A stretch of 38,537 nt of DNA from contig JAFSZO010000065.1 of assembly GCA_017455605.1 (NCBI GenBank), positions 1 through 38,537 on the forward strand. The letters are read 5' to 3'. The notes below the pieces were generated by a model. The model was not told the DNA's origin, did no database searches, and saw only the letters and a list, made by a program, of their open reading frames with translations. Of the stretch, positions 14,586 through 38,537 are shown one piece after another. Position 1 is the first letter of the stretch, and each line of letters opens with the position of its first letter. A program made the translations under genes and the position numbers. Source of the DNA: Clostridia bacterium. Lineage in GTDB: Bacteria; Bacillota; Clostridia; Christensenellales; CAG-1252.

Positions 14586-14612
14586 GCATGAATAGGAGTG
14601 ACACACAACGAA

Positions 14613-15356: not shown

Positions 15357-15407
15357 CCCCTCTGAAAAACTCTCAAAAAAAGAAAAGAATATTTCTCAAA
15401 AAAACGC

Positions 15408-15436
15408 TTGCAATTTATTCGGCACGGTGATATGCT
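15408..15436 (+). promoter_or_regulatory. Predicted sigma-A promoter for the dgt-dnaG-rpoD operon
   Basis: TTGCAA (15408-15413), a 17-nt spacer and TATGCT (15431-15436), preceded by TG one base upstream (extended -10). The surrounding DNA is A/T-rich. Transcription would start near 15443, giving a 5' leader of roughly 40-60 nt before dgt. Confidence 0.7.
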
Positions 15437-15503
15437 ATAAAAGCCTAATTATAATCGGGTGTTATTTTTTCCGTGCGGGATGGCTCTTTCCGAATCGGAG
15501 AAA

Positions 15504-20741: not shown

Positions 20742-20763
20742 TCGCGAGGGAAGGAGCGAAACT

Positions 20764-21462
20764 ATGGAATTATCCTCTATGCTGGCTTATCAGGAGATCG
20801 ACAAAGAACGGTCCAAGCTCGAAAGCGAATTCATGCAGACGGAATGTGTGCGTGAATACAATGCGGCGAAAAAGACGTTGCAGAGCGCCACGGAGCAGGT
20901 CGTTTCGCAGAACGCCGCCGCAGGAGAGCTCGTCAAACAGATGCAGACCTTGATCGCCGAATACGACGCGCTCGAGAAGGAGCTCAAAGAGGCGGAAAGC
21001 GCCCTCCCCGAGGTGGAAGACCTCGACGGCGCGGAGTTTTTCTCCCGCAACGTGCAGAAACTGTTGCAACAGCTCAAAACGCTCGCGGGCGAGATCAACA
21101 AGGTCAGCACCAAGATCGTCGAGCTCAATCAGGCGCACGCGGCGACGATGGCAGCCGGCAAGAACGCGAAGCAAAAGGTCGCCTCGACCAAAGAGGCGTA
21201 TATGGCGGAGAGAGAAAAGGTGATGCCTGCCGTAGAGGCGCTGAAAAAGAAGCTCGAGGAGGCGGCGAAATCCTGCTCGGAGAAGTTCATCGCCGAGTAC
21301 CAGCGACTCAAACAGGCGAAGAAGACGCCCGTCCTCGTGCCGTTGTCCGGCTACAATTGCGGGGGATGCTTTATGGAGCTTTCCGGCGATGCTCTCACGG
21401 TCTTGGACAACAGTCCGTACGTCATTTGTCCGAACTGCGGCAGGATCGTTTACAGGGGATAA
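20764..21462 (+). CDS. C4-type zinc-ribbon coiled-coil protein (COG1579 family)
   Basis: A 232-residue cytoplasmic protein. A long charged antiparallel coiled-coil hairpin covers about residues 10-185. It ends in a zinc ribbon with C199-x2-C202 and C222-x2-C225 (CGGC, CPNC). Members of this family are frequent neighbours of nif3 and are thought to act as nucleic-acid or protein tethers; the exact role is unknown. AAGGAG (20751-20756) is 7 nt from the ATG, and the gap to nif3 is 22 nt. Confidence 0.9.
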   Translation: MELSSMLAYQEIDKERSKLESEFMQTECVREYNAAKKTLQSATEQVVSQNAAAGELVKQMQTLIAEYDALEKELKEAESALPEVEDLDGAEFFSRNVQKLLQQLKTLAGEINKVSTKIVELNQAHAATMAAGKNAKQKVASTKEAYMAEREKVMPAVEALKKKLEEAAKSCSEKFIAEYQRLKQAKKTPVLVPLSGYNCGGCFMELSGDALTVLDNSPYVICPNCGRIVYRG

Positions 21463-23167: not shown

Positions 23168-23204
23168 GAGGCGGTCGGGGCAATCCCCGATCGCCTCTTT
23201 TTTT
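23168..23204 (+). terminator. Rho-independent terminator after putP
   Basis: A 13-bp stem GAGGCGGTCGGGG / CCCCGATCGCCTC (one G-U pair) with loop CAAT at 23168-23197, followed by seven T (23198-23204). It ends the housekeeping operon 20 nt after the putP stop and insulates the accessory operon downstream. Confidence 0.92.
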
Positions 23205-23388: not shown

Positions 23389-23417
23389 TTGACAGATAGT
23401 GTCGAAAATGGTAAAAT
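23389..23417 (+). promoter_or_regulatory. Near-consensus sigma-A promoter of the accessory operon
   Basis: TTGACA (23389-23394, perfect -35), exactly 17 nt spacer, TAAAAT (23412-23417, 5 of 6 match). Predicted start of transcription is near 23424, about 90 nt before the Hsp70-like start codon. It suggests substantial basal transcription unless a regulator intervenes; no clear operator palindrome was seen over the elements. Confidence 0.82.
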
Positions 23418-23513
23418 CAAATAAACAAAACAGCTTTTATGTGGCGTTCGTCGCATTCTTCGTTGGCGGACGGGTCGCAAGACCGCTTTATCACATTCAT
23501 CGGGAGTCTCTGC

Positions 23514-25562
23514 ATGAAAAACAAAAAAACGGATTTTATCAGCGTATCGATCGACCTCGGTGCGGATACGACCAAGGTCGCGTGCGCGTATCGCGACGTG
23601 GACGGTAGCTACGCTTACGAGTTGCTTTTCAACGGCGGAGAGGGCGCCCCTTCGATGGCGTATTACGATCCCGACGCGCAGAAATGGGTCTTCGCCAAGG
23701 AGGAGATCCTACGTTACGCCAAAAAGTCCTTTAAGTACCTCGTCCGTATCAAGGACCTCCTGGATCTTTTCTATACGCGCGCGGAGGACGGTCTGTACAA
23801 CGGGCGCATTTACAAGAACTATCACTATCCGCCCAGAGCGAACGAGTCCTACCGGGGAGCGATCGAGAGCGGCGACTGTTTTGAGGCGATGACGACGCCG
23901 AGGAACGTGGTGGCGCTCTTCGTCAAATACGTTTTGAACAAGGCGAAGGCGGAGGTCCGCCGTAAGTTCGGCGAGGTCAGGATCCGTTACGTTGTGGTCT
24001 ATCCCGCGAATGCTTCGATGGACTACATCAACGAGCTCGTCTCCTTCGTCAGGGAAAGCAAAGAGGAAGACGACGATATTTACGTCATCTCTTCCGCGAG
24101 AGCGGTCGGTGTGTCGGCTCGGGAGTTCGGCATCATCAACAAGGAGAAGAACGTGCTGATCTTCAACATCGGCGAGGACGAGACGTCCGTCGTCAAGGTG
24201 CGCTTTGACGACTCCAACATTTCCGCCTACGCCGCGGACGGGCACAACGATTCCGTGCGCCTGGGCGGCAGGAATATCGACGTCGCTTTGGCGTGCCGCC
24301 TCTTCGAGCTCGCGGGGACGGTCCCCTCCTTCGGCGGCATCGGCGGACAGGCGGAGCGGGGCAGCTACTACGACCAGTATCGGATGCAGGAAGGGATCAA
24401 GATCGGCAAAAAGATGTTCCCTCAATGGATCGCTTCCTATCCGACGGAGGGATACCCTTTCCCGATGTATCGCGAGATGGTCATGACTTTCAAGCTGGAC
24501 AAAGACGAGTTCCTCAAGTGTTGCGAACCCACGTTCGGTCGCATTTGGGACTACGTGGCGGAAGAGCTCGGCAGATCCGAGAACAAAGGATCGGTGGATG
24601 CGATCCTCTTCTCGGGCGGTGCTGCGGATACTTTCGGTCTGGACAAACACGTGGAGAAGCGTTTGAAAGAGAAGTATAAGAAGGTCAAGTTCCTCGACTT
24701 CAGCCCCGCGAACGAACAAAGCGGCTTCGACGACGTCCTGTGCGCCGCGAAGGATACCGTGCCCATCGGTGCAGCACTCTTCGGTGCGGAGAAGTACGAC
24801 TTCAAGATCCTGACCTCCTTTTCCTACGGCACTTGGACGGGCAGAATGGGCGATTTCGTCGGGAGCAGGGCGCCGGGAAAATACCGCTATATGGAACTAC
24901 TGAAGAAGGAAGTGAATATCCCCCTTGAAGGCACTCCGGACTTTCGCCGGATCGTGATGGGGGCCAAGTCATACTCCGGCGGTCCTCACGTCGAGAACGG
25001 CGGGTGGGTCGTAAACAACGAGTATTACAGCTGCGATACGGACGTCTTTCTTGAGGAGACGAGATTCGATCCGAATAAGAGCGAATTCATGATCGTTCTT
25101 CCCCCGGAATACTCGCTCAACTCCCCGACCAAAAAGTCCGCCATCCGCGGGGAAGGCTACTATCGAGTCAACGAGAAATCGAAGGATGCGATCCCGGTCG
25201 GCAAGATAGATCTGAAGCGGATCGGTTCGGGGTTCAAGATCGTCTACGAATTGCCTTTGGGCTGTGACAAGGATTTCCTCTATTCCTTGGCGGTGAGGAT
25301 CCAGCGAAGGAAGCCTCCCGAGGAGAAAGTCGATCTCAAAGACGGCGCGGGGTCCATCGACTTCTATTGGTCCATCGTGCTAGGCGAGATCAGGATGAAA
25401 GAAGGGTTTGAATTCGATTTCGAGGGGAGACCGACTCCCGTCGTGAAGAACGTCAGTAAAGAATGGTTCGGTGACCCCAAGAATTACGGCAAAGTGTACG
25501 ATCCCGTTTACGACAAGGTCATACTCCGTATCGAGACGAACGGCAATCGGGTCAGGTTTTAA
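23514..25562 (+). CDS. Hsp70/DnaK-like protein with altered catalytic residues
   Basis: 682 residues from ATG 23514 (GGAG 7 nt upstream); an in-frame ATG at 23439 has no ribosome site and lies only about 15 nt into the predicted transcript. The Hsp70/actin nucleotide-binding fold spans about 1-430: phosphate-1 IDLGADTTKV (13-22), VVVYPANAS (160-168) matching the DnaK VTVPAYF strand, phosphate-2 IFNIGEDETSV (216-226), LGGRNID (250-256), the adenosine motif ILFSGGAAD (364-372) and PIGAALFGA (417-425). By-eye alignment puts S194 and N218 where DnaK has catalytic E171 and D194, so hydrolysis may be weak or lost. Residues 430-682 look beta-rich and do not resemble the DnaK substrate-binding domain or lid. 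First gene of a six-gene operon, 15 nt before the helicase. No J-protein or GrpE is nearby. Probably cytoplasmic; partner unknown. Confidence 0.85.
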   Translation: MKNKKTDFISVSIDLGADTTKVACAYRDVDGSYAYELLFNGGEGAPSMAYYDPDAQKWVFAKEEILRYAKKSFKYLVRIKDLLDLFYTRAEDGLYNGRIYKNYHYPPRANESYRGAIESGDCFEAMTTPRNVVALFVKYVLNKAKAEVRRKFGEVRIRYVVVYPANASMDYINELVSFVRESKEEDDDIYVISSARAVGVSAREFGIINKEKNVLIFNIGEDETSVVKVRFDDSNISAYAADGHNDSVRLGGRNIDVALACRLFELAGTVPSFGGIGGQAERGSYYDQYRMQEGIKIGKKMFPQWIASYPTEGYPFPMYREMVMTFKLDKDEFLKCCEPTFGRIWDYVAEELGRSENKGSVDAILFSGGAADTFGLDKHVEKRLKEKYKKVKFLDFSPANEQSGFDDVLCAAKDTVPIGAALFGAEKYDFKILTSFSYGTWTGRMGDFVGSRAPGKYRYMELLKKEVNIPLEGTPDFRRIVMGAKSYSGGPHVENGGWVVNNEYYSCDTDVFLEETRFDPNKSEFMIVLPPEYSLNSPTKKSAIRGEGYYRVNEKSKDAIPVGKIDLKRIGSGFKIVYELPLGCDKDFLYSLAVRIQRRKPPEEKVDLKDGAGSIDFYWSIVLGEIRMKEGFEFDFEGRPTPVVKNVSKEWFGDPKNYGKVYDPVYDKVILRIETNGNRVRF

Positions 25563-25577
25563 GGAGAGGGAGAATAT

Positions 25578-28500
25578 ATGGCAAAGTACAAGATCAAATC
25601 CGCGGACAATCTGGAGTATTCGAGAAATACCCAAACGGCAACGACCGACGACGGTACCAACGGCGGCGGACAAGGCGACCTGAACAGCAGAAAGCCCAAT
25701 CCTCTGACCGGAGAAAAAATGAATGAGGTCAAACAGGTCGAGACGTTGGCGCGTTACGACGATTTTGCGGATCTGAGGATCAAGATGCCTTTTTACGCAC
25801 AGCGCGGCAAATACGGCATCCCCTTCAAACCGTCGGTCCATAGGAACGAGTCGAATCCGAGGATCCGAGACTATCAGGAGCAGGCGGCGAGACTGTTTCT
25901 TTCAGACTTGCGCGGGTTCGGTCTCCTGGCTGACTGCGTGGGCAGCGGCAAGACCTACGAGGCGTGTGTCGTCATCAGCGAGCTCGCCGTACGCGGCATC
26001 GTCGAGAATATGCTGCTCATCGTCCCCGATCCTTTGTGTGAGAAATGGAAAAGGGTCTTCGAGTTGGAATTCGGTTTCGGCGCAGGGAAACTGCAGCTGA
26101 TCAAGGATATAGGAGATATCAAAAAGATCGAGACGACCGAGGGTGGATTCAGGAGGCCGGTAGGCGCCTTTATAATGACTTATTCCGCCTTTAAGGACAT
26201 TCGCAATACCGAGATCGAAAGCTACCTCTTCGATCTCATCGTAGTAGACGAAGCGCACAACCTCTGCGAACAACGGGACGGCACCCCCGACTCGATGTAT
26301 CGTTTGTCCAAGATGATGCAGATCAAGAAGCGTGCGGAGAAAGCGTATTGCTTGCTCTTGACCGCGACGCCGCATTCCGGTAATTTGGCGAACATGTTCA
26401 ACCTGTGGTATTTCATCCGCCGCAAGGGCGGCATCCCCGAGTGTTTCAAGAAGGACGGCAGACCGACGGAGCGGGAAAAGGCGGAATACAACAAGGAGAA
26501 GAAGTATTACTTCGAGACCGTCTGCAAAGGAGCGACGACCGTCGCCGAGTACGTGGCAAAGGCGGAATGCGAGTTCCTCGAAGGGATGGAGGGCACGCAC
26601 AGCGACGTCCGCGACAAGTACCTTTCCCCGTTCGAGGTGACCATCGACGCGGGGGATCGCGGCAGGCGTATCCGCAAGCCCGGTTTGACTTGGGAAGAGT
26701 ACAAGAAACTGAAGGACTGCGAGAAGCGATCGCGCGCACAGGCTTTCCTGCGTTGGTGCGAACGACATGGTCCTGGGTCGCCGGAGTATCAGATAAAACA
26801 GAATGCGATCGACGCCGTCAACCGCTTCTATACCAATACCGTGATGCGGTCCATCATGGTTCGCAGAAGAAATTCGTTCGTATTGGTTCGCAATGCGTTC
26901 AGCTATTTCTTCCTGCCTGTCAAAGAGCGCGTTTCTTTCCCCGTGCAACCTCCGGTCGGCGGATCGACACCGTTCCTCAAGGTGGACGGCTCGTGTTACT
27001 ACACGTTGGAAGGGGTGGATTCCTTTTTCTCTCAGACTCGGGCGGTTCGTGCGCTTTTTGATGATAATCCTTATTTCCGAGACAGGAACAGCCTGGGAGA
27101 GGAAGGGTTCTCCGATTACTACGACGTCACGATCAAAAGCATCTTAGCCAACGCCGCTTCGCTCAGGGATTTCATCCGCGTCGAGCAGGTCCCGTGTGGG
27201 AGCGATGCGGAGATGGAGGAGGCTGTCTTCCGTGCGAAATGCGAACGTTTCGTCTCCTTGCTTCGGGAGATCCGCGGCAGAAAAAAAAGCTCGCAGGACG
27301 AACAGGAGCCGCAAAAGAGAGTGATCGTTTTCTTCGATTACGAAAAGGCGGAAAATGAAGAGGCGGGCAATGAGAATTCCACGGGGAAGAGGCTGCTTCG
27401 GTATTTGAACGAAAACGCGACGGATCTTGCCGCGGACGTCATCGAAGGTCGTTCCGATATGGGTGTACTGCCGCAGGTCTTCATCGAAAAGTATTCGCAA
27501 AACCCAAATGGTATCCTCTTTGCGGAGGATCAGACCTTCACGGAAGGTCTCGATCTGCAGAACGGCAACGTCGTGATCAATTTCGAGGTGCCCATCGATC
27601 CCTTGGCGGTGGATCAGAGGATCGGGCGCGTGTACAGAATGGGGCAGGCGGCGAAACAGGTGGAGATCTATTCCTTCGCCAACATGACGAGGCTGGACGG
27701 ATACTGCTTGGGCTATTTCGCCCGTATCGGCATATTGAGCGACGTGCAAGGAGATGCGACGATCCTGTCCGGATGCAACAGCGACAGCATGGTGGTCGTG
27801 CGGTGTCCCTCCTGCAACGAGGTGTCGATGATGCTCGAGAGCGACTATGAGGAGAGTCTGCGTACCTGCGAGCAATGCGGTGGCAGAATGGTCCCGACTC
27901 GCGTCTCCGATTCCGATTCTTCTTGGGAAGAATGCTACGTCTGTACGAAAAATCCCACGCACCGCGTCAAGGTCGAAAAGAACAATCCGCTCCGTTGCGA
28001 ACTATGTGAAGACGCCCCCGTTCGTGAATTGATCACGTTCAGCGAATTCGTTTGTCCGCAAAACAAGTTGCATCGGATCCGTAGGTCCAAAGAGAACGAT
28101 TACGCCTATCTCTGCATGTCGAGAGAAAAGAAGATCATGTGGCGCGATTCCGATTGCAAGACGACGAATCTGGTCGGCTGTTCCAAACTCTGCGCGGTGA
28201 AGAACTGTCGGCAAAAGCCCTCCGATTGCCTGATCACCGAGGAGACCGACGAGGGGAATGCGAGAGTCATCTGCCTCTCTTGCAGGCACAGGGACAATTG
28301 CATGTGCAACACCAAGATCTCCGTCGCGAACAGTTGCATGGATTGTAATTGCAGTTCGAGTTTCAGATGCGGCACGAAACCCTACGTGATCGATTTCGGT
28401 GCGGACTACAAGTCCGGAAAGTGCCCGTACTGCGGGGTGAACCTCTTGCAGATCAAACCGAATTCCTTCGAGACTTTCATACGTGAGAGATACGAGCGCG

Positions 28501-28583
28501 ACCGCTGCTTTGCGAAGAACTTCCTCGGAGAAGCGCAAAACACGCTCACCATCAAGGAAATCATCAAATTCAATAACGACTGA
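25578..28583 (+). CDS. RapA/SNF2-like superfamily 2 helicase with cysteine-rich C-terminal region
   Basis: 1001 residues. Predicted ATP-driven DNA translocase. Residues 15-45 are low-complexity. Motif I is LLADCVGSGKTYEA (116-129), close to the RapA form LLADEVGLGKT. Motif II is VVDEAHNL (222-229) and motif III LLTATPHSGN (260-269). Motif V is around EGLDL (656-660) and motif VI QRIGRVYRMGQ (680-690), characteristic of SNF2/RapA proteins. A long charged segment (about 290-580) separates the two lobes. Residues 743-977 carry about 25 cysteines, many as CxxC pairs (743/746, 764/767, 786/789, 807/810, 949/952), indicating several zinc ribbons. GGGAG lies 5 nt before the ATG. RapA/SNF2-like helicases occur in DNA repair, transcription recycling and defence systems such as DISARM (DrmD), but no methylase or DISARM partner is visible here. 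Confidence 0.88.
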   Translation: MAKYKIKSADNLEYSRNTQTATTDDGTNGGGQGDLNSRKPNPLTGEKMNEVKQVETLARYDDFADLRIKMPFYAQRGKYGIPFKPSVHRNESNPRIRDYQEQAARLFLSDLRGFGLLADCVGSGKTYEACVVISELAVRGIVENMLLIVPDPLCEKWKRVFELEFGFGAGKLQLIKDIGDIKKIETTEGGFRRPVGAFIMTYSAFKDIRNTEIESYLFDLIVVDEAHNLCEQRDGTPDSMYRLSKMMQIKKRAEKAYCLLLTATPHSGNLANMFNLWYFIRRKGGIPECFKKDGRPTEREKAEYNKEKKYYFETVCKGATTVAEYVAKAECEFLEGMEGTHSDVRDKYLSPFEVTIDAGDRGRRIRKPGLTWEEYKKLKDCEKRSRAQAFLRWCERHGPGSPEYQIKQNAIDAVNRFYTNTVMRSIMVRRRNSFVLVRNAFSYFFLPVKERVSFPVQPPVGGSTPFLKVDGSCYYTLEGVDSFFSQTRAVRALFDDNPYFRDRNSLGEEGFSDYYDVTIKSILANAASLRDFIRVEQVPCGSDAEMEEAVFRAKCERFVSLLREIRGRKKSSQDEQEPQKRVIVFFDYEKAENEEAGNENSTGKRLLRYLNENATDLAADVIEGRSDMGVLPQVFIEKYSQNPNGILFAEDQTFTEGLDLQNGNVVINFEVPIDPLAVDQRIGRVYRMGQAAKQVEIYSFANMTRLDGYCLGYFARIGILSDVQGDATILSGCNSDSMVVVRCPSCNEVSMMLESDYEESLRTCEQCGGRMVPTRVSDSDSSWEECYVCTKNPTHRVKVEKNNPLRCELCEDAPVRELITFSEFVCPQNKLHRIRRSKENDYAYLCMSREKKIMWRDSDCKTTNLVGCSKLCAVKNCRQKPSDCLITEETDEGNARVICLSCRHRDNCMCNTKISVANSCMDCNCSSSFRCGTKPYVIDFGADYKSGKCPYCGVNLLQIKPNSFETFIRERYERDRCFAKNFLGEAQNTLTIKEIIKFNND

Positions 28584-28597
28584 TAAGGGGATAGACT

Positions 28598-30355
28598 ATG
28601 GCAAGAATCACTTATTCCATTAAGGACGAGGACGGAAAGCTGTTTCCGACCATCAAAAACTTGATCATCTCTTTTACGCAGTCGCACGAGCACGAGAGCT
28701 TTCCTTTCCGCGTGGAGGGGGACTCCGTCATCTACGCGGATGGCTCTAACGAGTATTGGTATTCCCTCGGAGGACGATCCGCGACCGGTCAAGGTGAACA
28801 GGTGTACATGGACGCGAACGGCGCGTCTTGGTTCAAGACGATGCGTGGCGACGGTGATCCGGATGATTCGGTCAAGGCATCCAATCATTGGCAGATCCTG
28901 ATCAGGAAACTCAGTGAGACCTTTTACGCGAACAATTTCTTCTTCTATTGCGACCTCACGAGCGAGCGCATCAACGAGATAAACGACATCGAGGCGGAGA
29001 ATAACATCGGGCGCTTCGTGGAAACCTGTTTCGGAGAGAAGCTCGAGGATATCGAACTGAGAAAGGTCGACACGACCGACCAATACGTTTACGCAGCGAG
29101 TTTTCGCTTTGAGGTGAGCAAATCCATCGGCGCTCCGCAACCCGTCTTGGGCAGGGTGTATTACCTCAACAAATCCGACGGTACGACGGAACTGCTCAGC
29201 GTGCAGGATGCAACGGAACTCGATAGGAGCCTCGAGTCCTTTGAGAGAGACAGCAACGACGCCGTGACCGAGGAAAAAAACATCAATACGACGATCGACC
29301 ATCTGATCGAGAACATCAAAAGCCGAGATCATTTGGAGAAGAACATTGTCTTTAACGAGGACAACCAAGCCGTGATCAAGAGGATCGTCGATCCTTCCTT
29401 TGCGGGGAGCGGTGACCCGAACGCGATGAAATCCGAGGAGATACAGATCGACATCAAGAAGGCGACCGTCAATACGATCTTTAAGATCAAGGTGAACGCC
29501 AAAACCTACGAGGTCTACTATAAGCGCTTTACCGAGCGTAGGACGCCCGTACTGCGCGTCGACATCCTGTTTAACAAGATCTCGATGCGCTGCCTCTCCT
29601 GCAACGAGGACATCGTCGTCGGCAACGTCATCGAATACTGCTCGGCAGGTGAGACGCAAAGGAAGCGCGCAGAACTCTCGTTTGAAAGCGACGCGATCAC
29701 CTTCCGCGATCCGACCGACTCTCAGAAGACCTCGGAGGATATCCTGTACGAACTCAAGGAGAGCGTATTCTCCGAGCATCTCTATCCCGTGAGCGGTTGT
29801 CCCACTCGCATCGGCCGTGGCAATTGCTTCGGTTACGTTTGCAGGAACGATCAGATCGCGGTCAAGGATATCGAAACGGGGGAGAAGATTATCCGTTGCA
29901 AAAAGTGTCCTTTCCCCGAGAGTTTCGTCATCGTGGACGGCGGGGCTTACACGACGAGCAGCGTCTTCTTCGACGTGAACGAGCGCCGTCTCCGACTCAA
30001 AAAAGACGAGCACGGCGAGTGCGCTTTCTGTTCCACCTGCGGGAGACGATTCTATCAAAACGCAGACGAATGGGGTGAGCAGTGCGCGTTGTGTGCTTCC
30101 CTCTCCGATGGGGACGTAGCGGTGACTAACAGACAAAAAGAGACCTATCGGGCGTATCGCGGTTTCCTGCCGATCCGTTTGCGCTTGGCGGGTCGCAAAC
30201 GTTGCGCGGAGGATGAATCCGCCATCACGTTTAAGATCGGCGACAAATACTACTCCTTCAACAAGATCGACGCGATCCTGTCAGGGGAGCGTTCTCTCGA
30301 AGAAAAGCGCGAGAAAGAGAAGCGCTTGAGGAAAGAACGCAGACGCGGAAAGTAA
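28598..30355 (+). CDS. Cysteine-rich protein of unknown family (zinc-ribbon-like)
   Basis: 585 residues, not recognised as a known family. No signal peptide or membrane helix is apparent, so it is probably cytoplasmic. Residues 1-320 are mixed alpha/beta without obvious motifs. From about 330 there are clustered cysteines: C332/C335 with C348, C401/C410/C415, C434/C437, C475/C478/C481 and C496/C499, suggesting two to four zinc sites. The last 25 residues are highly basic and helical (K, R and E rich). AAGGGG is 7 nt before the start and the gene begins 14 nt after the helicase. Cysteine richness like that of the helicase tail suggests the two products may bind each other or the same nucleic acid; that is inference. 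Confidence 0.8.
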   Translation: MARITYSIKDEDGKLFPTIKNLIISFTQSHEHESFPFRVEGDSVIYADGSNEYWYSLGGRSATGQGEQVYMDANGASWFKTMRGDGDPDDSVKASNHWQILIRKLSETFYANNFFFYCDLTSERINEINDIEAENNIGRFVETCFGEKLEDIELRKVDTTDQYVYAASFRFEVSKSIGAPQPVLGRVYYLNKSDGTTELLSVQDATELDRSLESFERDSNDAVTEEKNINTTIDHLIENIKSRDHLEKNIVFNEDNQAVIKRIVDPSFAGSGDPNAMKSEEIQIDIKKATVNTIFKIKVNAKTYEVYYKRFTERRTPVLRVDILFNKISMRCLSCNEDIVVGNVIEYCSAGETQRKRAELSFESDAITFRDPTDSQKTSEDILYELKESVFSEHLYPVSGCPTRIGRGNCFGYVCRNDQIAVKDIETGEKIIRCKKCPFPESFVIVDGGAYTTSSVFFDVNERRLRLKKDEHGECAFCSTCGRRFYQNADEWGEQCALCASLSDGDVAVTNRQKETYRAYRGFLPIRLRLAGRKRCAEDESAITFKIGDKYYSFNKIDAILSGERSLEEKREKEKRLRKERRRGK

Positions 30356-30367
30356 GAGAGGTGCAGA

Positions 30368-33300
30368 ATGAGTAAAACCATCGATTTTTATAACGGAACG
30401 GATCTCGCCAAGAAAGATCATTCCGACAATACGAAAAAACTCTTTTTCGATCGCAAGATCGGACTGGTGACCGCCTTGCTCGCCGCCTTCGTCGCCGACG
30501 TGTTCGTTTTGGTTGCGATGATCTTGACGACGGGGCAGGCGAGGTACTACGTTTCCCCGATCTTGCTGGTCGCAGTCGACCTCCTGTTCTTGGTGTTCGT
30601 ATTTCTCGGCAACTTGAATCAGAAGTATATGAAGCGTCATTTGACCCTCTACTTCTTATCGTCGATCGCTCTCGTGCTCGCGACGGTCCTCGTCCCGACT
30701 TTGGATGCGACCTGCCGCAGTATGACCTATCTCGCCCTCGGGGCATTCGTCCTGACGCAGCTCCTGAAGGGGATCTTCGTCGGCTTGCTCTTCCGCATCG
30801 ACAAGGATCGCGACGTCACGATCCGCCATTTCGTGCGGAACGTCGTGCTTTGTGCGCTGTTGATCCTCGTCTTGTTGGTCTACTGCTCTTGGGGGTTCGC
30901 GGGAGGCGTTATGGGTCAACGTGTGCCTCTCACCGGCAAGAATAGCACCCTCGTCTATCGCCTAAACGAAAAGAATCAATACGAGGTCGTAGGGGCGTTT
31001 GCGGACGGCAACGTGATCGACGTGCCCGAGACCTTCAACGGGAAGCCTGTCGTCGCTTTGGACTGCGGCATTCTGGATGCCTCGATCGACAAAGTCAAGC
31101 TGTCTCGAAAGGACGTCCGATTGGAAAACACCACGCATCTCTCCCCCTTGAGCGAGGATTTCGTCATTGAGGTACGGAAAGAACTCCTCGACGACGTTCG
31201 TTTGGGCCTTTTTTATAAGCAGTGGGACTCTGCGGGCAATCCTACGGGGGCAAATCGGCTCTTCGCTAAGGTGACCCCCTCCGACCTCGAAGACGGGGAG
31301 ATCTACTATAACGTCTCGTACGAGAACGCGGAAACGGGTAGTTCGATCGGTTACGTTCCCACGATCTATAAAAAGGGAGTCGCCGCGATTACGATGGACG
31401 ACCTGAAGGAAAGGATCGATCCCGAGAAGAAGAAACTCATCGAGCATTCCGATTTCAACAGTCAGACCGATCTGGCGTATTGTTTCGAGCATAACGACGG
31501 GATGATCCTGACTAAGGGCGATTCCGCCGCGAACGACCTGCATTTGAGCCTCGAGAAGATCTATCGCTTCACGATCGGAACGCAAGGAGCGGATCACCAC
31601 GGCAACGACCTGAAATGGGCGCCCGAGGAATCAGAGCGCGTCAGATATGCGGTGCGTTCCAATTTGACCGATTGTTTCGACTCTCTTCCCGCGAGGAACG
31701 GGTTTACCGTCACCTGGGCTATGAATGCCGAGAACGGTCCGAACCACGCGATCGGTACCGATGCAGAGTTCCGTCTCGCCGTCGATACGGAGGTCAGCTC
31801 CACTACCTTCGATCTCGAACCGCAATGGACGTTGATCCCGCCCTCGATCGAGTCGGTCGCCGCTTCGAGCGTCACGATCACTTACGGTGAGAACGCCGAG
31901 TTTGCGATCTCGACGAGTTGTGCCTTCCCGGTGCAGTACACTTTGAAAAAGGGCACCGAGACCCTTTCCGTAGGGGACGCGCAGCCCGGTAGTTGGCATT
32001 ACGCGATGGATGGCAAGGTACCTGCGGACAGCGGGGAGTACCTCCTCTCGATGGCGGCGCATCCCGATGCCGCGATCACCTCGCTCGCATTTTCCGAGCC
32101 CGTCGACCAGAGCTATTCCTTTACGGTTAATAAAAAGGAGCTCCACCTCAATTGGACCCTCCCCGGCGGAGTGTTCACCAATGCGGCGCAGCCCGTCCTC
32201 TTGTCCTACGAGGAGAGCGATCGTGTCGGCTCCGACGAGATCGAGATCACCAAGGATATGGATTCCGCGACCAACGCCGGCAAGTACGTCGTGAACGCTA
32301 CGATGGACGACGCCTCCGCCGCGAAGTACTTCTTCCCCACGGAGGGAGAGTACGCCGCCACGCGCACTTTCTCGATCGACAAAAAGCCGCTCGTCATCGT
32401 TTGGGACGATCTGACCTACGTCTATAACGGGCAAGCGCAGTCCCCGATCGCGACGACACAGGCATTCGGCGTGTCCGAGCGACTGGTCGTCACCGGCGCG
32501 GGAACCCACGCGGGTCATTACGAAGTGACTGCGACCGCGTGTGAGGTCGAGGAGAACGACAATGGCGTGACCATCAACGCGGATAACTACGTGATCGCGG
32601 AGAACGTCACCAAAGGATACGACATTTCGAAGAAGGTTTTGGCGGTCGCCCATTGGTCTACCGACTCGTTTGTCTACGACGGTACCGCTCATACGGTCAC
32701 GGTCGCGGAGCTGTTCGGCTACGTCAGCGGAGAAGGGGAGACGGCGCTCGCCGATCTGCTCTACGAGAACAACGTGGAAATCAATGCCGCCGATTACGCT
32801 TTGACCGCCACCTTCTGCGAGGAGAGCGACTACACCTTCGGCGATGGCGAAGCCGCTTCGGTCGAAAAGGCGTTCGTCATCGAACCCAAGCCGGTCGGAT
32901 ACACTTGGGGCGTGACGACCTTTGATTACAACAAGACGCCGCAACGTCCGACGGCTGTCGTGCGCGTCGCCGATCTGTGCGGTACGGACGATTGCTATTT
33001 CCTGTACGAAGGCGAGCAGACCGACGCCGGCGAGTACGAGGTGACCGTCACGGACGTGACCAACCCGAATTATCGGCTGGAGGACGGGACGCACACCCAA
33101 GCCTTCACGATCAACAAGATCCGGCGCCCCGAGTTGACGATCACTTATGCCGATCGCGTGTACGGGGCGGCGGCTCCGACGCCCGTCTTGGGCGGCAACG
33201 AGGAAGAGGGGACAGCGACCTACCTTTATCGCATCAACGATCCGGAATCTCCCTACGTCGCGACGGCCCCGACGACTCGAGGCTCCTATGTGGTGCAGGT

Positions 33301-36118
33301 CACGACCGCCGAAACCAAGAACTATCTGGAGACGGCGGCGGAGACCGCCTACAAGATCGATCCGAGACCTGTCGAGGTGGCGTGGGGGACGATCGATCCC
33401 GTCTACTCCAAGAGCGCGAAGCTACCCATCGCGACCGTGAAGAACAAGGTCGGCGAGGATGTAGTGACCCTTACCGTCAAGGTCAAAGAGGGAATGGATA
33501 ACGTGAACGTAGGCAACGTCGAGTACGTAGTCGGTCAAATCGTCGATAACGCGAACTATACCCTCGTCGGTGGCAAGAACGTTGCCAGCGCTCCCTACGA
33601 GATCACGCCTTACGAGATCACGTTGCTTTGGGACGATCTCGATGCCTCCGCGCTCGTCTATTCCCGCACCGCGAAGGTGGTTAGCGCGACGGCGCAAGCC
33701 CTGTTCCCCGGTGATACGTGCGAGGTCACGACCGCGCTCACCACGGGGAAGGACAACGTGAACGTCGGCAAATTCACCTTTACGGAGACGGCTCTTTCCA
33801 ACCCGAATTACAAGGTCGCCAAAGCCGAGAGTGAAGAATATACGATCACGCAAAAACCCCTCACGGTAACGGCGGAGGACGTCATCGGTCTCGTGTACGG
33901 CGCTCCGATCCCCTCCTTTGCCAACGACGTCGTCGGGTTGATCGAGGGAGACTCTCTTGCGGGTACCGCGATCTATCATACTACTTACGATCCCACCGAT
34001 GCGGAGAAGCGCGGAGTAGGGGAGTACGAAGTGACGGTCGAGGGACTCTTGAACGCGAACTACGCCATCTCCTTCGAAAAGGGCACGTTGACCGTGACGC
34101 AGAGGATCGTGACCGTCTCGTGGGATTTCCACACCTGTGTCTATGACGGTGATTCCCATTTGCCGAGCGCGACGGTCACCGATCTCGCCTATAGCGGTGA
34201 CGAGCTCCTCCTGTCCTACGACACCGACGATGAAAAGGTGAACGTCGGGGAGTATTCGCGCAAGATCGAATCCTTGAGCGGCGCCCAAAAAGGCAACTAC
34301 ACCTTGGAGAGCGGCGCGGGTTACCTGCAGGCATGGAGCATCACGGACGCCACCCTGGAGGGCGACCTCGCACAATTGAACGCTCTGACCTACGACGGCA
34401 CGGCACAAACGCCCGAGGCGACGACGTTGACATCGGTGAATTGGCAGACGATCACCTACACCTACAGCGAGACTGTGAACGGCGTCTACGGCGCGATGCC
34501 CGCCTATACGAACGCGGGCGAGCATACCCTCTATTACAAGGCGAACGCCGCCAACCATAGCGAAAAAACGGGTCAATTCACCGTAGCCGTCTTGAAGAGG
34601 GCGCTTACGATCACGGCGGACAGCGCCGAGAAGGTCTACGACGGCACTGCGCTCACGAAAAATACCTATACGATCAGCAGCGGCACTCTTGCCACCGGAG
34701 ACGCGATCGAGAGCGTTACCCTCACCGGCACGCAGGCGGAGGTAGGCTTTGGCGACAACGTTCCTTCCTCGGCGGTGATCAAGCGCTCGGGCGTCAACGT
34801 GACGACAAACTATGCGATCACCTATGTGAAAGGTGTTTTGGAGGTCACTCCCGCGACCCTCGAAGGTACGCTTGGGCAGGAAGGGGCGCTCATCTATACG
34901 GGCGAGCCGCAGGCGGCGTCCGTGAACACCCTGAGCTCGGTGTACGGACAGCAGATCACCTACACCTACAGCAAGACGCAGAACGGCTCGTACGGCACGA
35001 TGCCTACCTTTACGGAAGCGGGCGAGCATACTGTCTATTACGAGGCGACCGCTCCGAATCATAACAAAAAGACGGATAGCTTCGTCGTGACGATCGGAAA
35101 GGCGAGTATTACGGGTGCGCTCGGGCAGGAAGGGGCGCTCACCTATACGGGTGCGGCGCAGGCGGCGTCCGTGAGCGGACTTGCCGCAGTGGACGGAGCA
35201 AATATCGATTATACGTTCAGTTCGGAAGCGGAGGGGGCGTACGGCGCGATGCCCGCCTATACGAACGCGGGCGAATATACCCTCTATTACAAGGCGAACG
35301 TCGCCAACCATAGCGAAAAAACAGGTCAATTCACTGTGACCGTCGCGAGGAAGGCGCTCACGATCACGGCGGACAGCGCCGAGAAGGTCTACGACGGCAC
35401 TGCGCTCACGAAAAATACCTATACGATCAGCAGCGGTACTCTTGCCACCGGAGACGCGATCGAGAGCGTTACCCTCACCGGCACACAGACGGAGGCAGGT
35501 TCTGCCTACAACGTACCCTCCGCAGTCGTGATCAAACGCGCGGACGTCAACGTTACGACAAACTATGCGATCACCTATGTGAAAGGTGTTTTGGCGGTCA
35601 TTCCCGCGACCCTCGACGGCACACTCGCACAGTCGAGCTCGCTCATCTATACGGGCGAGCCGCAGGCGGCGTCCGTGAGCGGACTCGCCGCAGTGGACGG
35701 AGCAAATATCGATTATACGTTCAGTACGGAAGCGGAGGGCGTCTACGGCGCAATGCCCGCCTTTACGGATGCGGGTGAGTATCTCGTCTATTACAAGGCG
35801 AACGCCGCCAACCATAGCGAAAAAACGGGTCAATTCACCGTGACGATCGGCAAGGCTTCTCGCGCCGCAGTGACGGTCTCGATCGAAGGGTGGGCGGTCG
35901 GCGATGCTCCGAACGATCCCGAAACGAGTGAGATCAAGGAGAGCGGAGAGACTACGGTGACGTATCTCTATTACGCCGAGAGCGAGACCGCCGACGATGC
36001 GACCGAGGACGTTCCGACCGAAGCGGGGACCTACTACGTATTCGCTGAGGTGTCGGCGTCGTCAAATTATCTCGAAACGCGATCCGACTATTGTCAATTC
36101 GTGATATATGATGTATAA
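30368..36118 (+). CDS. Polytopic membrane protein with giant extracellular MBG-type repeat region
   Basis: 1916 residues. Five predicted helices (about 31-54, 60-81, 91-111, 118-142, 153-175). Basic residues flank the loops so that the N-terminus is inside and everything after residue ~176 is outside. Residues ~190-500 begin with a stretch reminiscent of BspA-type repeats (NVIDVPETFNGKPVVAL) and otherwise match nothing I recognise. From ~500 to ~1860 there are a dozen or more MBG/YDG-like beta domains, each marked by a YDG, YNG or YGA turn and a DAGEY/NVGEY-like strand. The last copies are near-identical at DNA level. There is no sortase signal or second anchor at the C-terminus. GAGG is 6 nt before the ATG. 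Role inferred: surface sensor, adhesin or scaffold tied to the cytoplasmic products of the same operon. Confidence 0.87.
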   Translation: MSKTIDFYNGTDLAKKDHSDNTKKLFFDRKIGLVTALLAAFVADVFVLVAMILTTGQARYYVSPILLVAVDLLFLVFVFLGNLNQKYMKRHLTLYFLSSIALVLATVLVPTLDATCRSMTYLALGAFVLTQLLKGIFVGLLFRIDKDRDVTIRHFVRNVVLCALLILVLLVYCSWGFAGGVMGQRVPLTGKNSTLVYRLNEKNQYEVVGAFADGNVIDVPETFNGKPVVALDCGILDASIDKVKLSRKDVRLENTTHLSPLSEDFVIEVRKELLDDVRLGLFYKQWDSAGNPTGANRLFAKVTPSDLEDGEIYYNVSYENAETGSSIGYVPTIYKKGVAAITMDDLKERIDPEKKKLIEHSDFNSQTDLAYCFEHNDGMILTKGDSAANDLHLSLEKIYRFTIGTQGADHHGNDLKWAPEESERVRYAVRSNLTDCFDSLPARNGFTVTWAMNAENGPNHAIGTDAEFRLAVDTEVSSTTFDLEPQWTLIPPSIESVAASSVTITYGENAEFAISTSCAFPVQYTLKKGTETLSVGDAQPGSWHYAMDGKVPADSGEYLLSMAAHPDAAITSLAFSEPVDQSYSFTVNKKELHLNWTLPGGVFTNAAQPVLLSYEESDRVGSDEIEITKDMDSATNAGKYVVNATMDDASAAKYFFPTEGEYAATRTFSIDKKPLVIVWDDLTYVYNGQAQSPIATTQAFGVSERLVVTGAGTHAGHYEVTATACEVEENDNGVTINADNYVIAENVTKGYDISKKVLAVAHWSTDSFVYDGTAHTVTVAELFGYVSGEGETALADLLYENNVEINAADYALTATFCEESDYTFGDGEAASVEKAFVIEPKPVGYTWGVTTFDYNKTPQRPTAVVRVADLCGTDDCYFLYEGEQTDAGEYEVTVTDVTNPNYRLEDGTHTQAFTINKIRRPELTITYADRVYGAAAPTPVLGGNEEEGTATYLYRINDPESPYVATAPTTRGSYVVQVTTAETKNYLETAAETAYKIDPRPVEVAWGTIDPVYSKSAKLPIATVKNKVGEDVVTLTVKVKEGMDNVNVGNVEYVVGQIVDNANYTLVGGKNVASAPYEITPYEITLLWDDLDASALVYSRTAKVVSATAQALFPGDTCEVTTALTTGKDNVNVGKFTFTETALSNPNYKVAKAESEEYTITQKPLTVTAEDVIGLVYGAPIPSFANDVVGLIEGDSLAGTAIYHTTYDPTDAEKRGVGEYEVTVEGLLNANYAISFEKGTLTVTQRIVTVSWDFHTCVYDGDSHLPSATVTDLAYSGDELLLSYDTDDEKVNVGEYSRKIESLSGAQKGNYTLESGAGYLQAWSITDATLEGDLAQLNALTYDGTAQTPEATTLTSVNWQTITYTYSETVNGVYGAMPAYTNAGEHTLYYKANAANHSEKTGQFTVAVLKRALTITADSAEKVYDGTALTKNTYTISSGTLATGDAIESVTLTGTQAEVGFGDNVPSSAVIKRSGVNVTTNYAITYVKGVLEVTPATLEGTLGQEGALIYTGEPQAASVNTLSSVYGQQITYTYSKTQNGSYGTMPTFTEAGEHTVYYEATAPNHNKKTDSFVVTIGKASITGALGQEGALTYTGAAQAASVSGLAAVDGANIDYTFSSEAEGAYGAMPAYTNAGEYTLYYKANVANHSEKTGQFTVTVARKALTITADSAEKVYDGTALTKNTYTISSGTLATGDAIESVTLTGTQTEAGSAYNVPSAVVIKRADVNVTTNYAITYVKGVLAVIPATLDGTLAQSSSLIYTGEPQAASVSGLAAVDGANIDYTFSTEAEGVYGAMPAFTDAGEYLVYYKANAANHSEKTGQFTVTIGKASRAAVTVSIEGWAVGDAPNDPETSEIKESGETTVTYLYYAESETADDATEDVPTEAGTYYVFAEVSASSNYLETRSDYCQFVIYDV
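34352..35857 (+). repeat. 753-bp tandem duplication of MBG domains
   Basis: Two direct copies (34352-35104 and 35105-35857), 251 codons each, in frame. Each holds three MBG-type domains in the order A-B-A'. Constant-offset identity is strongest in 34487-34872 versus 35240-35625; within it, 34601-34731 and 35354-35484 differ at only two of 131 positions, both silent. A second identity run with a 504-bp offset (near 35159 and 35663) shows exchange between A-type domains inside the array. Confidence 0.9.
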
Positions 36119-36133
36119 TAATGAGGAAACAGT

Positions 36134-37171
36134 ATGAAAAAGAACGATAACCTCGAGTTTAAATGTTTGCTGTGCGAGGGTACGATCCGTCCGCTTACTT
36201 TTTTCGACGGTTCCGTTTGGTGTCCGCAATGCGGTAAAGAATTGTTCGCCGAACTGAAAGCTCGTTCCGAGAGGTGGACTCGCGCCTCCGATGCCGACGA
36301 CTCTTTCTCCCTGTCGCAGGAATTGTTCGCACGTTATTTGGACGAGAGTTATTCGCCGAAAATTCGGGCGGCGGCGCTCAGAAATGCGATCTACTATTGC
36401 CGCAAGGCGGCGTACGGGTGCGATCCATACGCACTCTTGAACCTCGGCTATTATTACGGCCTCGGTTACGACGATTCCGTTCATATGGAGACGGGTCGTT
36501 CCTTCGCGAAACTGTGTTTTGATTTGGCGAGGGATCATGCGCCGTCGGACGATCAGGATTTTATCGATCTGGTGAACAACAACGAATGCGCTCTGAATGC
36601 GCCGATCGAGAAGAGTACCCTCAACGATGAGGAGTATTTGACCCATTTGCTGAGCAGGATGGATTCGGCGGATCCCTTCACCGCCCCGCGCCTCGGCGTC
36701 TTTTGCATCGACAAGAGCTCATTGACCTGCTTTCAAGGGAGACCCGATGGGGAGGATACCGTATTGTCCTCGCTCAAGAGGCTGTTCGTCAAGGCGGATC
36801 TGTGGATGCTCAGTTTTACCGATCCGTGGTTTGCCGCGATCAATAACGAGAACATGATCAAGAATTGTTTTAACATGGGTGATCGCGTTTGGTTCTTCTA
36901 TTGCCGAAAGGGGGTCCCGCTCGGCAAGTTTAAAAGCAGGATCGTCGTGTCGTTGCGAAACGAAGCGGAATGGAAGCAGAACATCCCTCAGATCCGCGAT
37001 CTCGCGGAGAGTAGGGGAAATCGAAACGCGGATTTCTCCGATCAGGACCTCGTGATCTGCTCCTTCATCAAAAAGCACGAAGAGGAGTCGCAGAGTTACG
37101 ATCGGAGGAGCGACGACAAGGTCGATTCCGCATTGGATTGTTTGAAAAACGCATACGAGAAAAGGGCTTGA
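36134..37171 (+). CDS. Zinc-ribbon protein with Sel1-like repeat region
   Basis: 345 residues, predicted cytoplasmic. The N-terminus is a compact zinc ribbon with C11-x2-C14 and C30-x2-C33 (CLLC, CPQC). Residues ~78-135 resemble Sel1/TPR-like helical repeats (RNAIYYCRKAAYGCDPYALL, then LGYYYGLGY), which usually bind proteins. The C-terminal ~165 residues (LGVFCID, ADLWMLSFTDPWF, GDRVWFFYCRKGVPLG) are alpha/beta and not recognised. GAGGAAA precedes the ATG; the gap to the membrane protein is 15 nt. It could be an adaptor between the ribbon-rich proteins of the operon; that is inference. Confidence 0.78.
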   Translation: MKKNDNLEFKCLLCEGTIRPLTFFDGSVWCPQCGKELFAELKARSERWTRASDADDSFSLSQELFARYLDESYSPKIRAAALRNAIYYCRKAAYGCDPYALLNLGYYYGLGYDDSVHMETGRSFAKLCFDLARDHAPSDDQDFIDLVNNNECALNAPIEKSTLNDEEYLTHLLSRMDSADPFTAPRLGVFCIDKSSLTCFQGRPDGEDTVLSSLKRLFVKADLWMLSFTDPWFAAINNENMIKNCFNMGDRVWFFYCRKGVPLGKFKSRIVVSLRNEAEWKQNIPQIRDLAESRGNRNADFSDQDLVICSFIKKHEEESQSYDRRSDDKVDSALDCLKNAYEKRA

Positions 37172-37198
37172 TGCGGATAGAAAAGGAGAAAAGAACGG

Positions 37199-38537
37199 AT
37201 GAGCTTGGATTGGGAACTGATCAACAGGGTCGCGGCATATTACGAGTTTTCCGGAGGCAGCCTCGGAAGAGATTTTTGCGAATTCAGAAGAGGCGGGATC
37301 GCCGATTACTACGACGAAGGGAATCGGCAGATCGGCGAACAGAGGCTGATGCCGCTGGTTCGTAACTATCTCAGGTACGGCATCAGTCGCTCGGACAGAA
37401 AAGAGGTCGGGGCGCTTCTCGACTTTTTGGTCGATCTGACGAAGAAACCGAATACCAAGCTGAGACGTTACGACGGTTCGCGCGAAATGAAGAAATATCT
37501 ATTGAAAGGAGAAGGAGGAAGCAACATCATGGAAAGGAATTACGATAACTGTTGGTTTATAAGGAGTCTCGACAACGTGATCGAGGGGTTGCGTGTCAGC
37601 GTCAATTATTTGACCTCTCTTAAAGAGGGCTTGACGATGGATAGTGCCCGCTCGGATGCGGATGTCTTGATCGGCAGATACGAGGCGCTGATCGGCAGGG
37701 TCGAAGCGCTGAAAGACGCTCCGCCCGAGACGCAGACCGCCGTCACCGAGGAACTCAAGCCTGTGATCGCTGAACTCACCCGGGAGCATAATGAGAATCT
37801 TCGCCTCAGGCATTTGTCTCCCTCTCTGTCCGGTCCCGGGGAGCAGAACGTCTTCAACAGGATCGAGCCGAAACTGAAGAGTGCGGAGTCGGCGGCGGTC
37901 ACCTTGAGGAGGGGCAGCAAAAGACCGAACGCCGATGGCGTTGCCGCCGCGACGATCAGTCGCGGCAACTGGGAGGAGCTGCAGGCCCTTGCCGACGTCA
38001 GGCAGTATCGCGCGCTTTGCAACGCTTTGAAGGCGGAGATCGAGGAGACCTTGAGGAGAAAAGAGGAATACTTGAACAGAGAGCGCACCTCTTCCGATCT
38101 GACGGACAGAATGATCGAAGAGAAACAAGCCGCCAAGAAGAAGCTGGAAGAAAAAGCCGCGAAGCTCGCGCTCGACTATGAGAACGGGTTGATCGACGAC
38201 AAAGCTATCTCTGCGGAAGCGGATAGCATCGAGTCCGAGATGATGGATCTGGAGGATGCTCTCGAAGACCTTTACGAAGTAAAGAGGAACAGACCTACCG
38301 ATAACCTTGCCACCGAAAAAGCCTTTTTCGAGCAGACTCGTCTGTATTGGGATCGCATCTGCGTTTGCTTCGGCGGATTGCTGGAGGATACGACGTCGGA
38401 TCGCAGGATGGTCGAGCATTTCGAAGGGATCAGTGCCGGATTGCGTACCTTTGCGGCATACTTGAACGATTTCGACGACAACGGACACAGCCTCGATCTG
38501 AACGGCTTGAACGCCACGATGGAGAGCATCACGGAGC
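37199..38537 (+). CDS. Coiled-coil protein of unknown function (3' partial)
   Basis: Open reading frame from ATG 37199 to the window edge with no stop; 446 residues are visible. AAGGAG (37183-37188) is 10 nt upstream, and the gene starts 27 nt after the zinc-ribbon/Sel1-like gene, so it belongs to the same operon. Residues 1-100 form a small mixed domain (GGSLGRDFCEFRRGG, YLRYGISRSDRKEVGALLDF). The segment about 112-235 is helical. A strongly charged coiled coil covers about 272-362 (NALKAEIEETLRRKEEYL, EEKQAAKKKLEEKAAKLA). No membrane helix or signal peptide is seen, and no family was recognised. An in-frame ATG at 37529 with a strong ribosome site could produce a shorter form starting at residue 111. 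Confidence 0.82.
   Translation, partial: MSLDWELINRVAAYYEFSGGSLGRDFCEFRRGGIADYYDEGNRQIGEQRLMPLVRNYLRYGISRSDRKEVGALLDFLVDLTKKPNTKLRRYDGSREMKKYLLKGEGGSNIMERNYDNCWFIRSLDNVIEGLRVSVNYLTSLKEGLTMDSARSDADVLIGRYEALIGRVEALKDAPPETQTAVTEELKPVIAELTREHNENLRLRHLSPSLSGPGEQNVFNRIEPKLKSAESAAVTLRRGSKRPNADGVAAATISRGNWEELQALADVRQYRALCNALKAEIEETLRRKEEYLNRERTSSDLTDRMIEEKQAAKKKLEEKAAKLALDYENGLIDDKAISAEADSIESEMMDLEDALEDLYEVKRNRPTDNLATEKAFFEQTRLYWDRICVCFGGLLEDTTSDRRMVEHFEGISAGLRTFAAYLNDFDDNGHSLDLNGLNATMESITE
37505..37531 (+). promoter_or_regulatory. Possible internal ribosome binding site and start within the coiled-coil gene
   Basis: AAAGGAGAAGGAGGAAG (37505-37521) resembles two overlapping Shine-Dalgarno sequences, about 10 nt before the in-frame ATG at 37529-37531. 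In the full-length protein this stretch encodes LKGEGG, a plausible linker between the N-terminal domain and the helical part. Confidence 0.4.

What the first reader, a model, noticed from the sequence alone, without database searches (positions are those of the whole stretch)
23389..38537. Six-gene operon joining an Hsp70-like protein, SNF2/RapA-like helicase, cysteine-rich proteins and a giant surface repeat protein
Seen: one near-consensus promoter after a strong terminator, six same-strand genes with gaps of 12-27 nt and individual ribosome sites. Known: Hsp70-fold proteins and SNF2 helicases each occur in bacterial conflict and repair loci, but I know of no described system that also includes a five-helix protein with ~1700 residues of extracellular MBG repeats. 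Inferred: an outside-to-inside device in which the membrane protein senses or binds something and the cytoplasmic products act on nucleic acid. The operon continues beyond the right edge, so effector genes may be missing from view.
Basis: partly seen in the sequence, partly recalled or inferred. Interest (0 to 1): 0.82.

Follow-up and report, generated by a model that had tools for sequence, protein, structure and literature searches.

The report
Conserved ten-gene membrane-anchored NTPase operon
The window shows the first six genes of a ten-gene unit, conserved in order across one bacterial order but present in only about 8% of its genomes, that joins a giant cell-surface protein to several ATP-driven machines; it matches no described system and is most likely a new kind of anti-virus or conflict machine, which has not been tested.

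Summary
One conserved promoter drives six genes with gaps of 12-27 nt (A Hsp70-like, B RapA/SNF2-type helicase, C Zn protein, D five-helix surface protein with MBG repeats, E Zn-ribbon protein, F coiled coil). The contig breaks inside F. The rest lies on another contig of the same genome: G (HExxH metallopeptidase), H (DUF4011-UPF1-type helicase with a nuclease-dead C-terminal domain), I (small helical protein), J (CDC48/CdvC-type AAA+ ATPase). The order A-B-C-D-E-F-(G-H)-I-J recurs in 7 families of one order (30 of 396 genomes); A-E alone is the smallest form. In the same genus the unit sits between two genes that are 63-106 bp apart in non-carriers, so it is a discrete cassette. I found no such gene set in the class or phylum samples, PADLOC, or the literature searched. 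My best guess is a membrane-tethered conflict (anti-phage/anti-mobile-element) machine that remodels nucleoprotein, from helicase relatives of defence systems, patchy distribution and signs of transfer. Against it: flanks are mostly housekeeping and no active nuclease was recognised.

The parts
23168..23197 (+). intrinsic terminator of the upstream sodium:solute symporter gene
   Evidence: 13-bp stem, 10 G-C pairs, T-run; follows the symporter stop at 23148
23389..23417 (+). operon promoter TTGACA-N17-TAAAAT with conserved TCGAAAATGG in the spacer, a possible operator
   Evidence: 11/12 to consensus; found without mismatch only upstream of the operon in G000, G003, G005, and in G012 with an 18-nt spacer
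23514..25562 (+). gene A, Hsp70/ASKHA-fold ATPase, 682 aa (an ATG at 23439 is possible but lacks a ribosome site)
   Evidence: profile hits DnaK at E 0.005; DxGxDxxK, phosphate-2 and SGG motifs conserved, with phosphate-2 Asp replaced by Asn in family f1
25578..28583 (+). gene B, RapA/SNF2-type SF2 helicase with C-terminal cysteine clusters, 1001 aa
   Evidence: ResIII, SNF2 and Helicase_C; best PADLOC/NCBIfam matches BrxH, DrmD, DpdE, far below cut-offs; Walker A, DEAH, motif VI and many Cys invariant
28598..30355 (+). gene C, zinc-cluster protein of no known family, 585 aa
   Evidence: 11 invariant Cys in 22 sequences; model pLDDT 76, no Foldseek match at E<=0.001
30368..36118 (+). gene D, five-helix membrane protein with about 1700-residue MBG-repeat ectodomain, 1916 aa
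   Evidence: MBG_2 x5; five hydrophobic segments at 34-177 and positive-inside loops, same in 23/23 relatives, total length 920-2226 aa
36134..37171 (+). gene E, N-terminal zinc ribbon plus helical (Sel1-like pattern) protein, 345 aa
   Evidence: CxxC...CxxC invariant in 19 sequences
37199..38537 (+). gene F, coiled-coil protein, cut by the contig end (446 aa seen); C-terminal 124 aa and genes G-J follow on contig G000:C116 (locus L099)
   Evidence: alignment with relatives; continuation contig

Best explanation
SHOWN: this is one discrete chromosomal cassette with signs of horizontal transfer, preceded by one conserved promoter, whose core is A-E and whose full form is A-J. INFERRED: it is a membrane-tethered, multi-NTPase conflict (most likely anti-phage or anti-mobile-element) machine. 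D anchors it in the membrane and exposes a long repeat stalk outside. Inside, the Hsp70-like switch A, the RapA-type translocase B and the zinc proteins C and E form the core. F and I act as helical adaptors whose disordered C-terminal tails (ending like IDDIV) recruit the CDC48/CdvC-type unfoldase J. When present, G (metallopeptidase) and H (UPF1-type helicase with a dead nuclease domain) are a matched effector pair. The likely action is ATP-driven stripping, unfolding and proteolysis of foreign nucleoprotein at the membrane, not DNA cutting.
For: Unit: A and B occur in the same 5 of 20 family genomes; fixed gene order in 7 families; empty sites in the genus; conserved operon promoter. Defence-like: present in only 30 of 396 genomes of the order; the B tree does not follow families f3, f6, f32 (starred branches force 2 changes for f6 and f32); B is nearest to BrxH/DrmD/DpdE; H is nearest to the phage-defence candidate PDC-S37 (E 1e-113 to 1e-119) and Hhe (1e-53), J to IetA (6e-33) among PADLOC models. 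H has the MTES_1575 fold with Pro at the catalytic Asp position in 11/11; inactivated Vsr C-termini of defence helicases have precedent in Druantia (PMC12458937). G has HExxH plus a downstream Glu in 11/11. G-H are absent together in three genus-g74 genomes and both present in most other loci with enough sequence; G326 shows neither in the stretch read. Tails of I and F.
Against: Flanking genes are mostly housekeeping; only single matches to DpnII-type restriction, MzaA, PDC-S26 and HEC-06 among 138 flanking proteins. No active nuclease was recognised in any subunit. All genus carriers have the unit at the same place beside the symporter, which also fits old vertical inheritance with loss. No integrase or target-site repeat was noticed at the site. 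No functional data.
Confidence: 0.45

Rival explanations
1. A surface-contact or adhesion apparatus: D is an adhesin-like stalk, and the cytoplasmic NTPases assemble, turn over or energise it, with no role in immunity.
For: D is the largest subunit and always present, with a variable-length ectodomain in 23/23 loci; flanks are housekeeping; MBG/YDG surface proteins occur elsewhere in this genome (window 1-14550).
Against: Two nucleic-acid helicases with nearest relatives in defence systems are hard to explain in an adhesion device; distribution is patchy and mixed across families.
Confidence: 0.25
2. A membrane-tethered stress or quality-control machine (protein or RNA remodelling): Hsp70-like, CDC48-like AAA+, metallopeptidase and UPF1-type helicase act on stalled or damaged complexes.
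For: J is closest to CDC48 and CdvC; A is Hsp70-like; G is a predicted peptidase; in G021 the A-E form lies just upstream of hrcA-grpE-dnaK-dnaJ.
Against: A quality-control function would be expected in most genomes, but it is in 30 of 396; the chaperone neighbourhood is seen in one genome only; this view gives no role to the giant ectodomain.
Confidence: 0.18
3. A divergent member of an already described system (DISARM, BREX, Dpd, Druantia/ARMADA or CoCoNuT).
For: B is RapA-like as in DISARM/BREX/ARMADA; Hsp70-like, UPF1-like helicase, coiled-coil and AAA+ parts resemble type III CoCoNuTs (PMC11090510).
Against: No methyltransferase, PglZ, DrmA/DrmB, YprA helicase, McrB GTPase or McrC was recognised among operon proteins A-J; model scores are far below curated cut-offs.
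Confidence: 0.05
4. Artefact of metagenome binning or chance gene adjacency.
For: Most carriers are fragmented metagenome bins, and the window contig breaks inside F.
Against: Same order in contigs of 20-290 kb, and C found in 24 of 329 high-quality genomes of the order; exact empty sites in eight relatives.
Confidence: 0.01

Closest known systems
DISARM DrmD, BREX BrxHI/BrxHII, Dpd DpdE and ARMADA ArmA (RapA/Swi2-Snf2-type helicases)
   Same: Same SF2 helicase type as B, with conserved motifs (PMC12458937 for ArmA)
   Different: No methyltransferase, PglZ, DrmA/B or YprA partner; B has its own cysteine-rich C-terminus and scores far below cut-off (112 against 610 bits for DrmD)
CoCoNuT type III (CnuD Hsp70-like, CnuH UPF1-like, coiled coils)
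   Same: Hsp70-like protein, UPF1-like SF1 helicase, coiled coils, zinc ribbons, AAA+ partner; degenerate Hsp70 phosphate motif reported there (PMC11090510) and Asp to Asn in the window's family here
   Different: No McrB GTPase, McrC, HEPN or TerY-P genes found; has a five-helix surface MBG protein instead
PDC-S37 and Hhe (single-gene candidate and known phage-defence helicases)
   Same: H shares DUF4011, SF1 helicase and MTES_1575/Vsr-like architecture
   Different: H is one subunit of a ten-gene unit and its nuclease domain lacks the catalytic Asp in 11/11
IetAS (IetA AAA ATPase plus a protease partner)
   Same: J matches IetA at 6e-33, and an AAA ATPase and a peptidase share one operon
   Different: Peptidase G is an HExxH metallopeptidase (IetS is a serine protease, from general knowledge), and eight further genes are present
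ESCRT-III/Vps4 (CdvB/CdvC)
   Same: J matches CdvC over nearly full length; I is helical with a disordered linker and a short C-terminal motif; its top Foldseek match is Asgard ESCRT-IIIB
   Different: That match is not significant (E 1.1, model pLDDT 60); no Snf7 or MIT match among the families listed; J is scored higher by CDC48 than by CdvC

Membership tests
DISARM | DrmD helicase at curated score | tested here: not met
   112 bits against cut-off 610
DISARM | DrmA, DrmB and a methyltransferase in the operon | tested here: not met
   none recognised among A-J; DrmA-model matches of B are to its helicase core only
BREX | PglZ and PglX with BrxC | tested here: not met
   no such match in any operon protein
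CoCoNuT | McrB-like GTPase (NxD) and McrC/DUF2357 protein | tested here: not met
   no McrB or McrC match to A-J in the libraries used
CoCoNuT | Hsp70-like protein and UPF1-like SF1 helicase in the operon | tested here: met
   A, H
Hhe / DUF4011-helicase-Vsr | DUF4011 + SF1 helicase + Vsr/MTES_1575 domains | tested here: met
   DUF4011 35.7 bits (above cut-off), MTES_1575 29.8 bits (below cut-off 38.2) in H of G309
Hhe / DUF4011-helicase-Vsr | intact nuclease catalytic residues | tested here: not met
   Pro at the Asp position in 11/11; the expected Asp is from general knowledge of the family
ESCRT-III/Vps4 | Vps4/CdvC-type AAA ATPase | tested here: inconclusive
   CdvC 131 bits, cut-off 650; CDC48 150 bits
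ESCRT-III/Vps4 | ESCRT-III fold partner | tested here: inconclusive
   I: low-confidence helical model, top Foldseek hit Asgard ESCRT-IIIB at E 1.1; VIA Z 5-6 for several ESCRT-III/PspA chains, but unrelated helical proteins score the same or higher
ESCRT-III/Vps4 | MIT domain on the ATPase and MIM on the partner | tested here: inconclusive
   no MIT match in Pfam for G005 J; I ends in a conserved acidic-hydrophobic tail
Hsp70/DnaK superfamily (A) | ASKHA nucleotide-binding motifs | tested here: met
   conserved DLGxDxxK, (D/N)xGE, SGG; DnaK profile match E 0.005
HExxH metallopeptidase (G) | HExxH plus third ligand | tested here: met
   H573, E574, H577 and E631 invariant in 11 sequences; activity not tested
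defence system in general | location in defence islands | tested here: not met
   138 flanking proteins mostly housekeeping
defence system in general | protects a host from phage or plasmid | not testable with these tools
   needs experiment

The most novel reading that the evidence does not exclude
A new class of bacterial immune machine that spans the membrane: a repeat-stalk surface protein physically coupled to an Hsp70-like switch, two helicases and an unfoldase/peptidase, possibly with an ESCRT-like adaptor (I, F) and CDC48/CdvC-type ATPase (J) remodelling membrane or nucleoprotein at the site of phage or DNA entry.
Probability: 0.2. Interest if true: 0.93.

Novelty: categorically new. 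Interest (0 to 1): 0.76.

Why it matters
If the reading holds, this is a large multi-subunit system in uncultured Clostridia (one carrier is from water-buffalo rumen) that couples an outward-facing surface protein to ATP-driven nucleic-acid and protein remodelling, a combination I could not find in PADLOC models or in the papers searched. Three of the five core proteins (C, the membrane part of D, E) belong to no characterised family. The cassette boundaries, the minimal form (A-E) and the optional G-H module make it directly testable. The label 'categorically new' refers to the gene set and architecture, not to a demonstrated function.

Tried and rejected
Phage, plasmid or viral carriage: tblastn of B against phages and plasmids gave only generic RapA-type hits, at most 41% coverage and about 27% identity among the best places; a viral-contig scan found no relative. 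Membership in DISARM/BREX/CoCoNuT: rejected on missing hallmark genes. ESCRT-III identity of I: looked attractive from C-terminal tails and J, but sequence and fold give no significant support, so it is kept only as the novel case. Known fold for C: none found at E<=0.001, and absence of a match is no proof of a new fold. Wider taxonomic spread: 1 weak partial match outside the order in 391 class genomes and none in a phylum sample of 398 with the B profile at E<=1e-60; the two probes differ and the samples are limited. Alignment-based viral search with C failed for lack of conserved stretches. Literature searches found no description of this gene set; the library omits many journals.
Full report
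WHAT IS THERE. The window is contig C28 (1-38537, whole contig) of a 1.26-Mb, 75%-complete metagenome genome. A related carrier contig is titled 'Clostridia bacterium ... Water_buffalos_Rumen'. Downstream of the sodium:solute symporter gene (21481-23148) and its terminator (23168-23197) a promoter at 23389-23417 is followed by six same-strand genes: A 23514-25562, B 25578-28583, C 28598-30355, D 30368-36118, E 36134-37171, F 37199 to beyond the edge, with gaps of 15, 14, 12, 15 and 27 nt.

CONSERVATION. B is in 7 of 61 relatives, and A and B are in exactly the same five of 20 family genomes. A profile of C, which has no known family, finds 30 of 396 genomes of the order, in 7 families and 13 genera. 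Reading the neighbourhoods of 23 loci (F by position and alignment) gives A-B-C-D-E-F-(G-H)-I-J on one strand. The whole set A-J is on a single contig in G005, G024, G309, G379, G140, G264 and G269. Three genomes of genus g74 have A-F, I, J without G-H. G021 and G219 stop after E, and no G or J was found elsewhere in them. One contig (G306) has a J fragment upstream of A, an exception in order. Several other loci are cut by contig ends.

THE MISSING HALF. In the window's own genome, J and G lie on contig C116. That contig (L099) begins with the last 124 residues of an F-like reading frame and then carries G, H, I and J. The two contigs do not overlap, so the junction is inferred from gene order, which is the same in relatives, and from the genes that follow J. 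J there has an in-frame TGA near codon 26 where a relative has Trp: either a real break or an assembly error.

EMPTY SITES. All 13 genomes of the genus have the symporter. In eight non-carriers it is followed after 63-106 bp by the minus-strand genes that follow J in the carriers; in the ninth the contig ends. The operon is therefore a discrete unit gained or lost as a whole, about 23 kb in G005. No integrase or target repeat was noticed.

PROMOTER. TTGACA, then 7-8 nt, then TCGAAAATGGTAAAAT precedes the operon in G000, G003, G005 and G012. Genome searches found no perfect copy elsewhere in the genomes searched. The conserved spacer suggests an operator for an unknown regulator (inference).

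PARTS. A: Hsp70/ASKHA motifs and a weak DnaK match. In the window's family the phosphate-2 Asp is Asn. B: SF2 helicase with all main motifs and many invariant cysteines, nearest to BrxH, DrmD and DpdE but far below cut-offs. C: 11 invariant cysteines, model pLDDT 76, no fold match. D: five N-terminal hydrophobic helices in 23 of 23, positive-inside pattern consistent with N-in/C-out, total length 920-2226 aa, MBG-type repeats in many. E: N-terminal zinc ribbon invariant in 19. F: coiled coil. G: HExxH and a later Glu invariant in 11. H: DUF4011, SF1 helicase, MTES_1575 domain with Pro at the position of the catalytic Asp in 11 of 11; PADLOC best PDC-S37, then Hhe. I: helical, with a disordered tail ending in a DDI-like motif in most. 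J: classical AAA ATPase, best CDC48, then CdvC, PADLOC best IetA. F and, more loosely, G also end in short acidic-hydrophobic tails.

HISTORY. The tree of B keeps family f1 together but mixes f3, f6 and f32, and well-supported branches force at least two changes for f6 and f32. With the patchy distribution this points to horizontal transfer, though old duplication with loss is not excluded; two long branches (G326, G219) are unsure.

MECHANISM. Shown: gene content, order, co-inheritance, conserved catalytic motifs; predicted: membrane topology. Inferred: a complex at the membrane, D outside, A-C and E as core, F/I as adaptors for J, G-H as an optional effector pair. The absence of a recognised active nuclease and the presence of an unfoldase and a peptidase argue for remodelling and proteolysis rather than restriction. 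I give the conflict/defence reading 0.45, because the helicase and ATPase relatives, patchiness and transfer favour it, while the flanks do not.

COMPARISON. DISARM, BREX and CoCoNuT membership fails on hallmark genes. H meets the domain layout of Hhe-like proteins but not the intact nuclease. Resemblance to type III CoCoNuTs (Hsp70-like, UPF1-like helicase, coiled coils; PMC11090510) is of composition, not membership. ESCRT-like action of I and J is a lead only.

VERDICT. A real, conserved and, as far as I could search, undescribed ten-gene system, with function unproven. Interest 0.76.

Noticed in passing
window 1-14550 (+): A 4849-residue reading frame open at the left edge, with a YDG/MBG-type domain near residue 3810: another giant surface-type protein not adjacent to the operon.
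   Followed up: partly
L099 (G000:C116), start of gene J: In-frame TGA near codon 26 of J in the window's own genome where a relative has Trp; either a break or an assembly error.
   Followed up: partly
G021, loci L025/L016: The A-E-only form lies directly upstream of hrcA-grpE-dnaK-dnaJ.
   Followed up: no
L023:11929-15753: Gene G is duplicated in tandem in G024 (644 and 627 aa, both with HExxH).
   Followed up: no
C-termini of I, F and (more loosely) G in many loci: Unrelated operon proteins share short acidic-hydrophobic C-terminal tails (IDDIV, IDDIIF, VDLT), as if read by one partner such as J.
   Followed up: partly
L068 (G306): A J fragment and a 275-aa ORF lie upstream of A, and a 206-aa ORF lies between A and B: an altered gene order.
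   Followed up: no
L086 (G629:C71:5380-5790): Weak partial match to the zinc region of C outside the order (E 5e-8, two TGA inside).
   Followed up: no
window 36091-36119 (+): Promoter-like TTGTCA-17-TATAAT (11/12) at the end of D, before E; could be an internal promoter or chance.
   Followed up: no
window 14598-21462: Left of the operon: HD-domain protein, DnaG primase, sigma-70 factor, TrmK, DUF34/NIF3 and a zinc-ribbon protein (housekeeping).
   Followed up: yes
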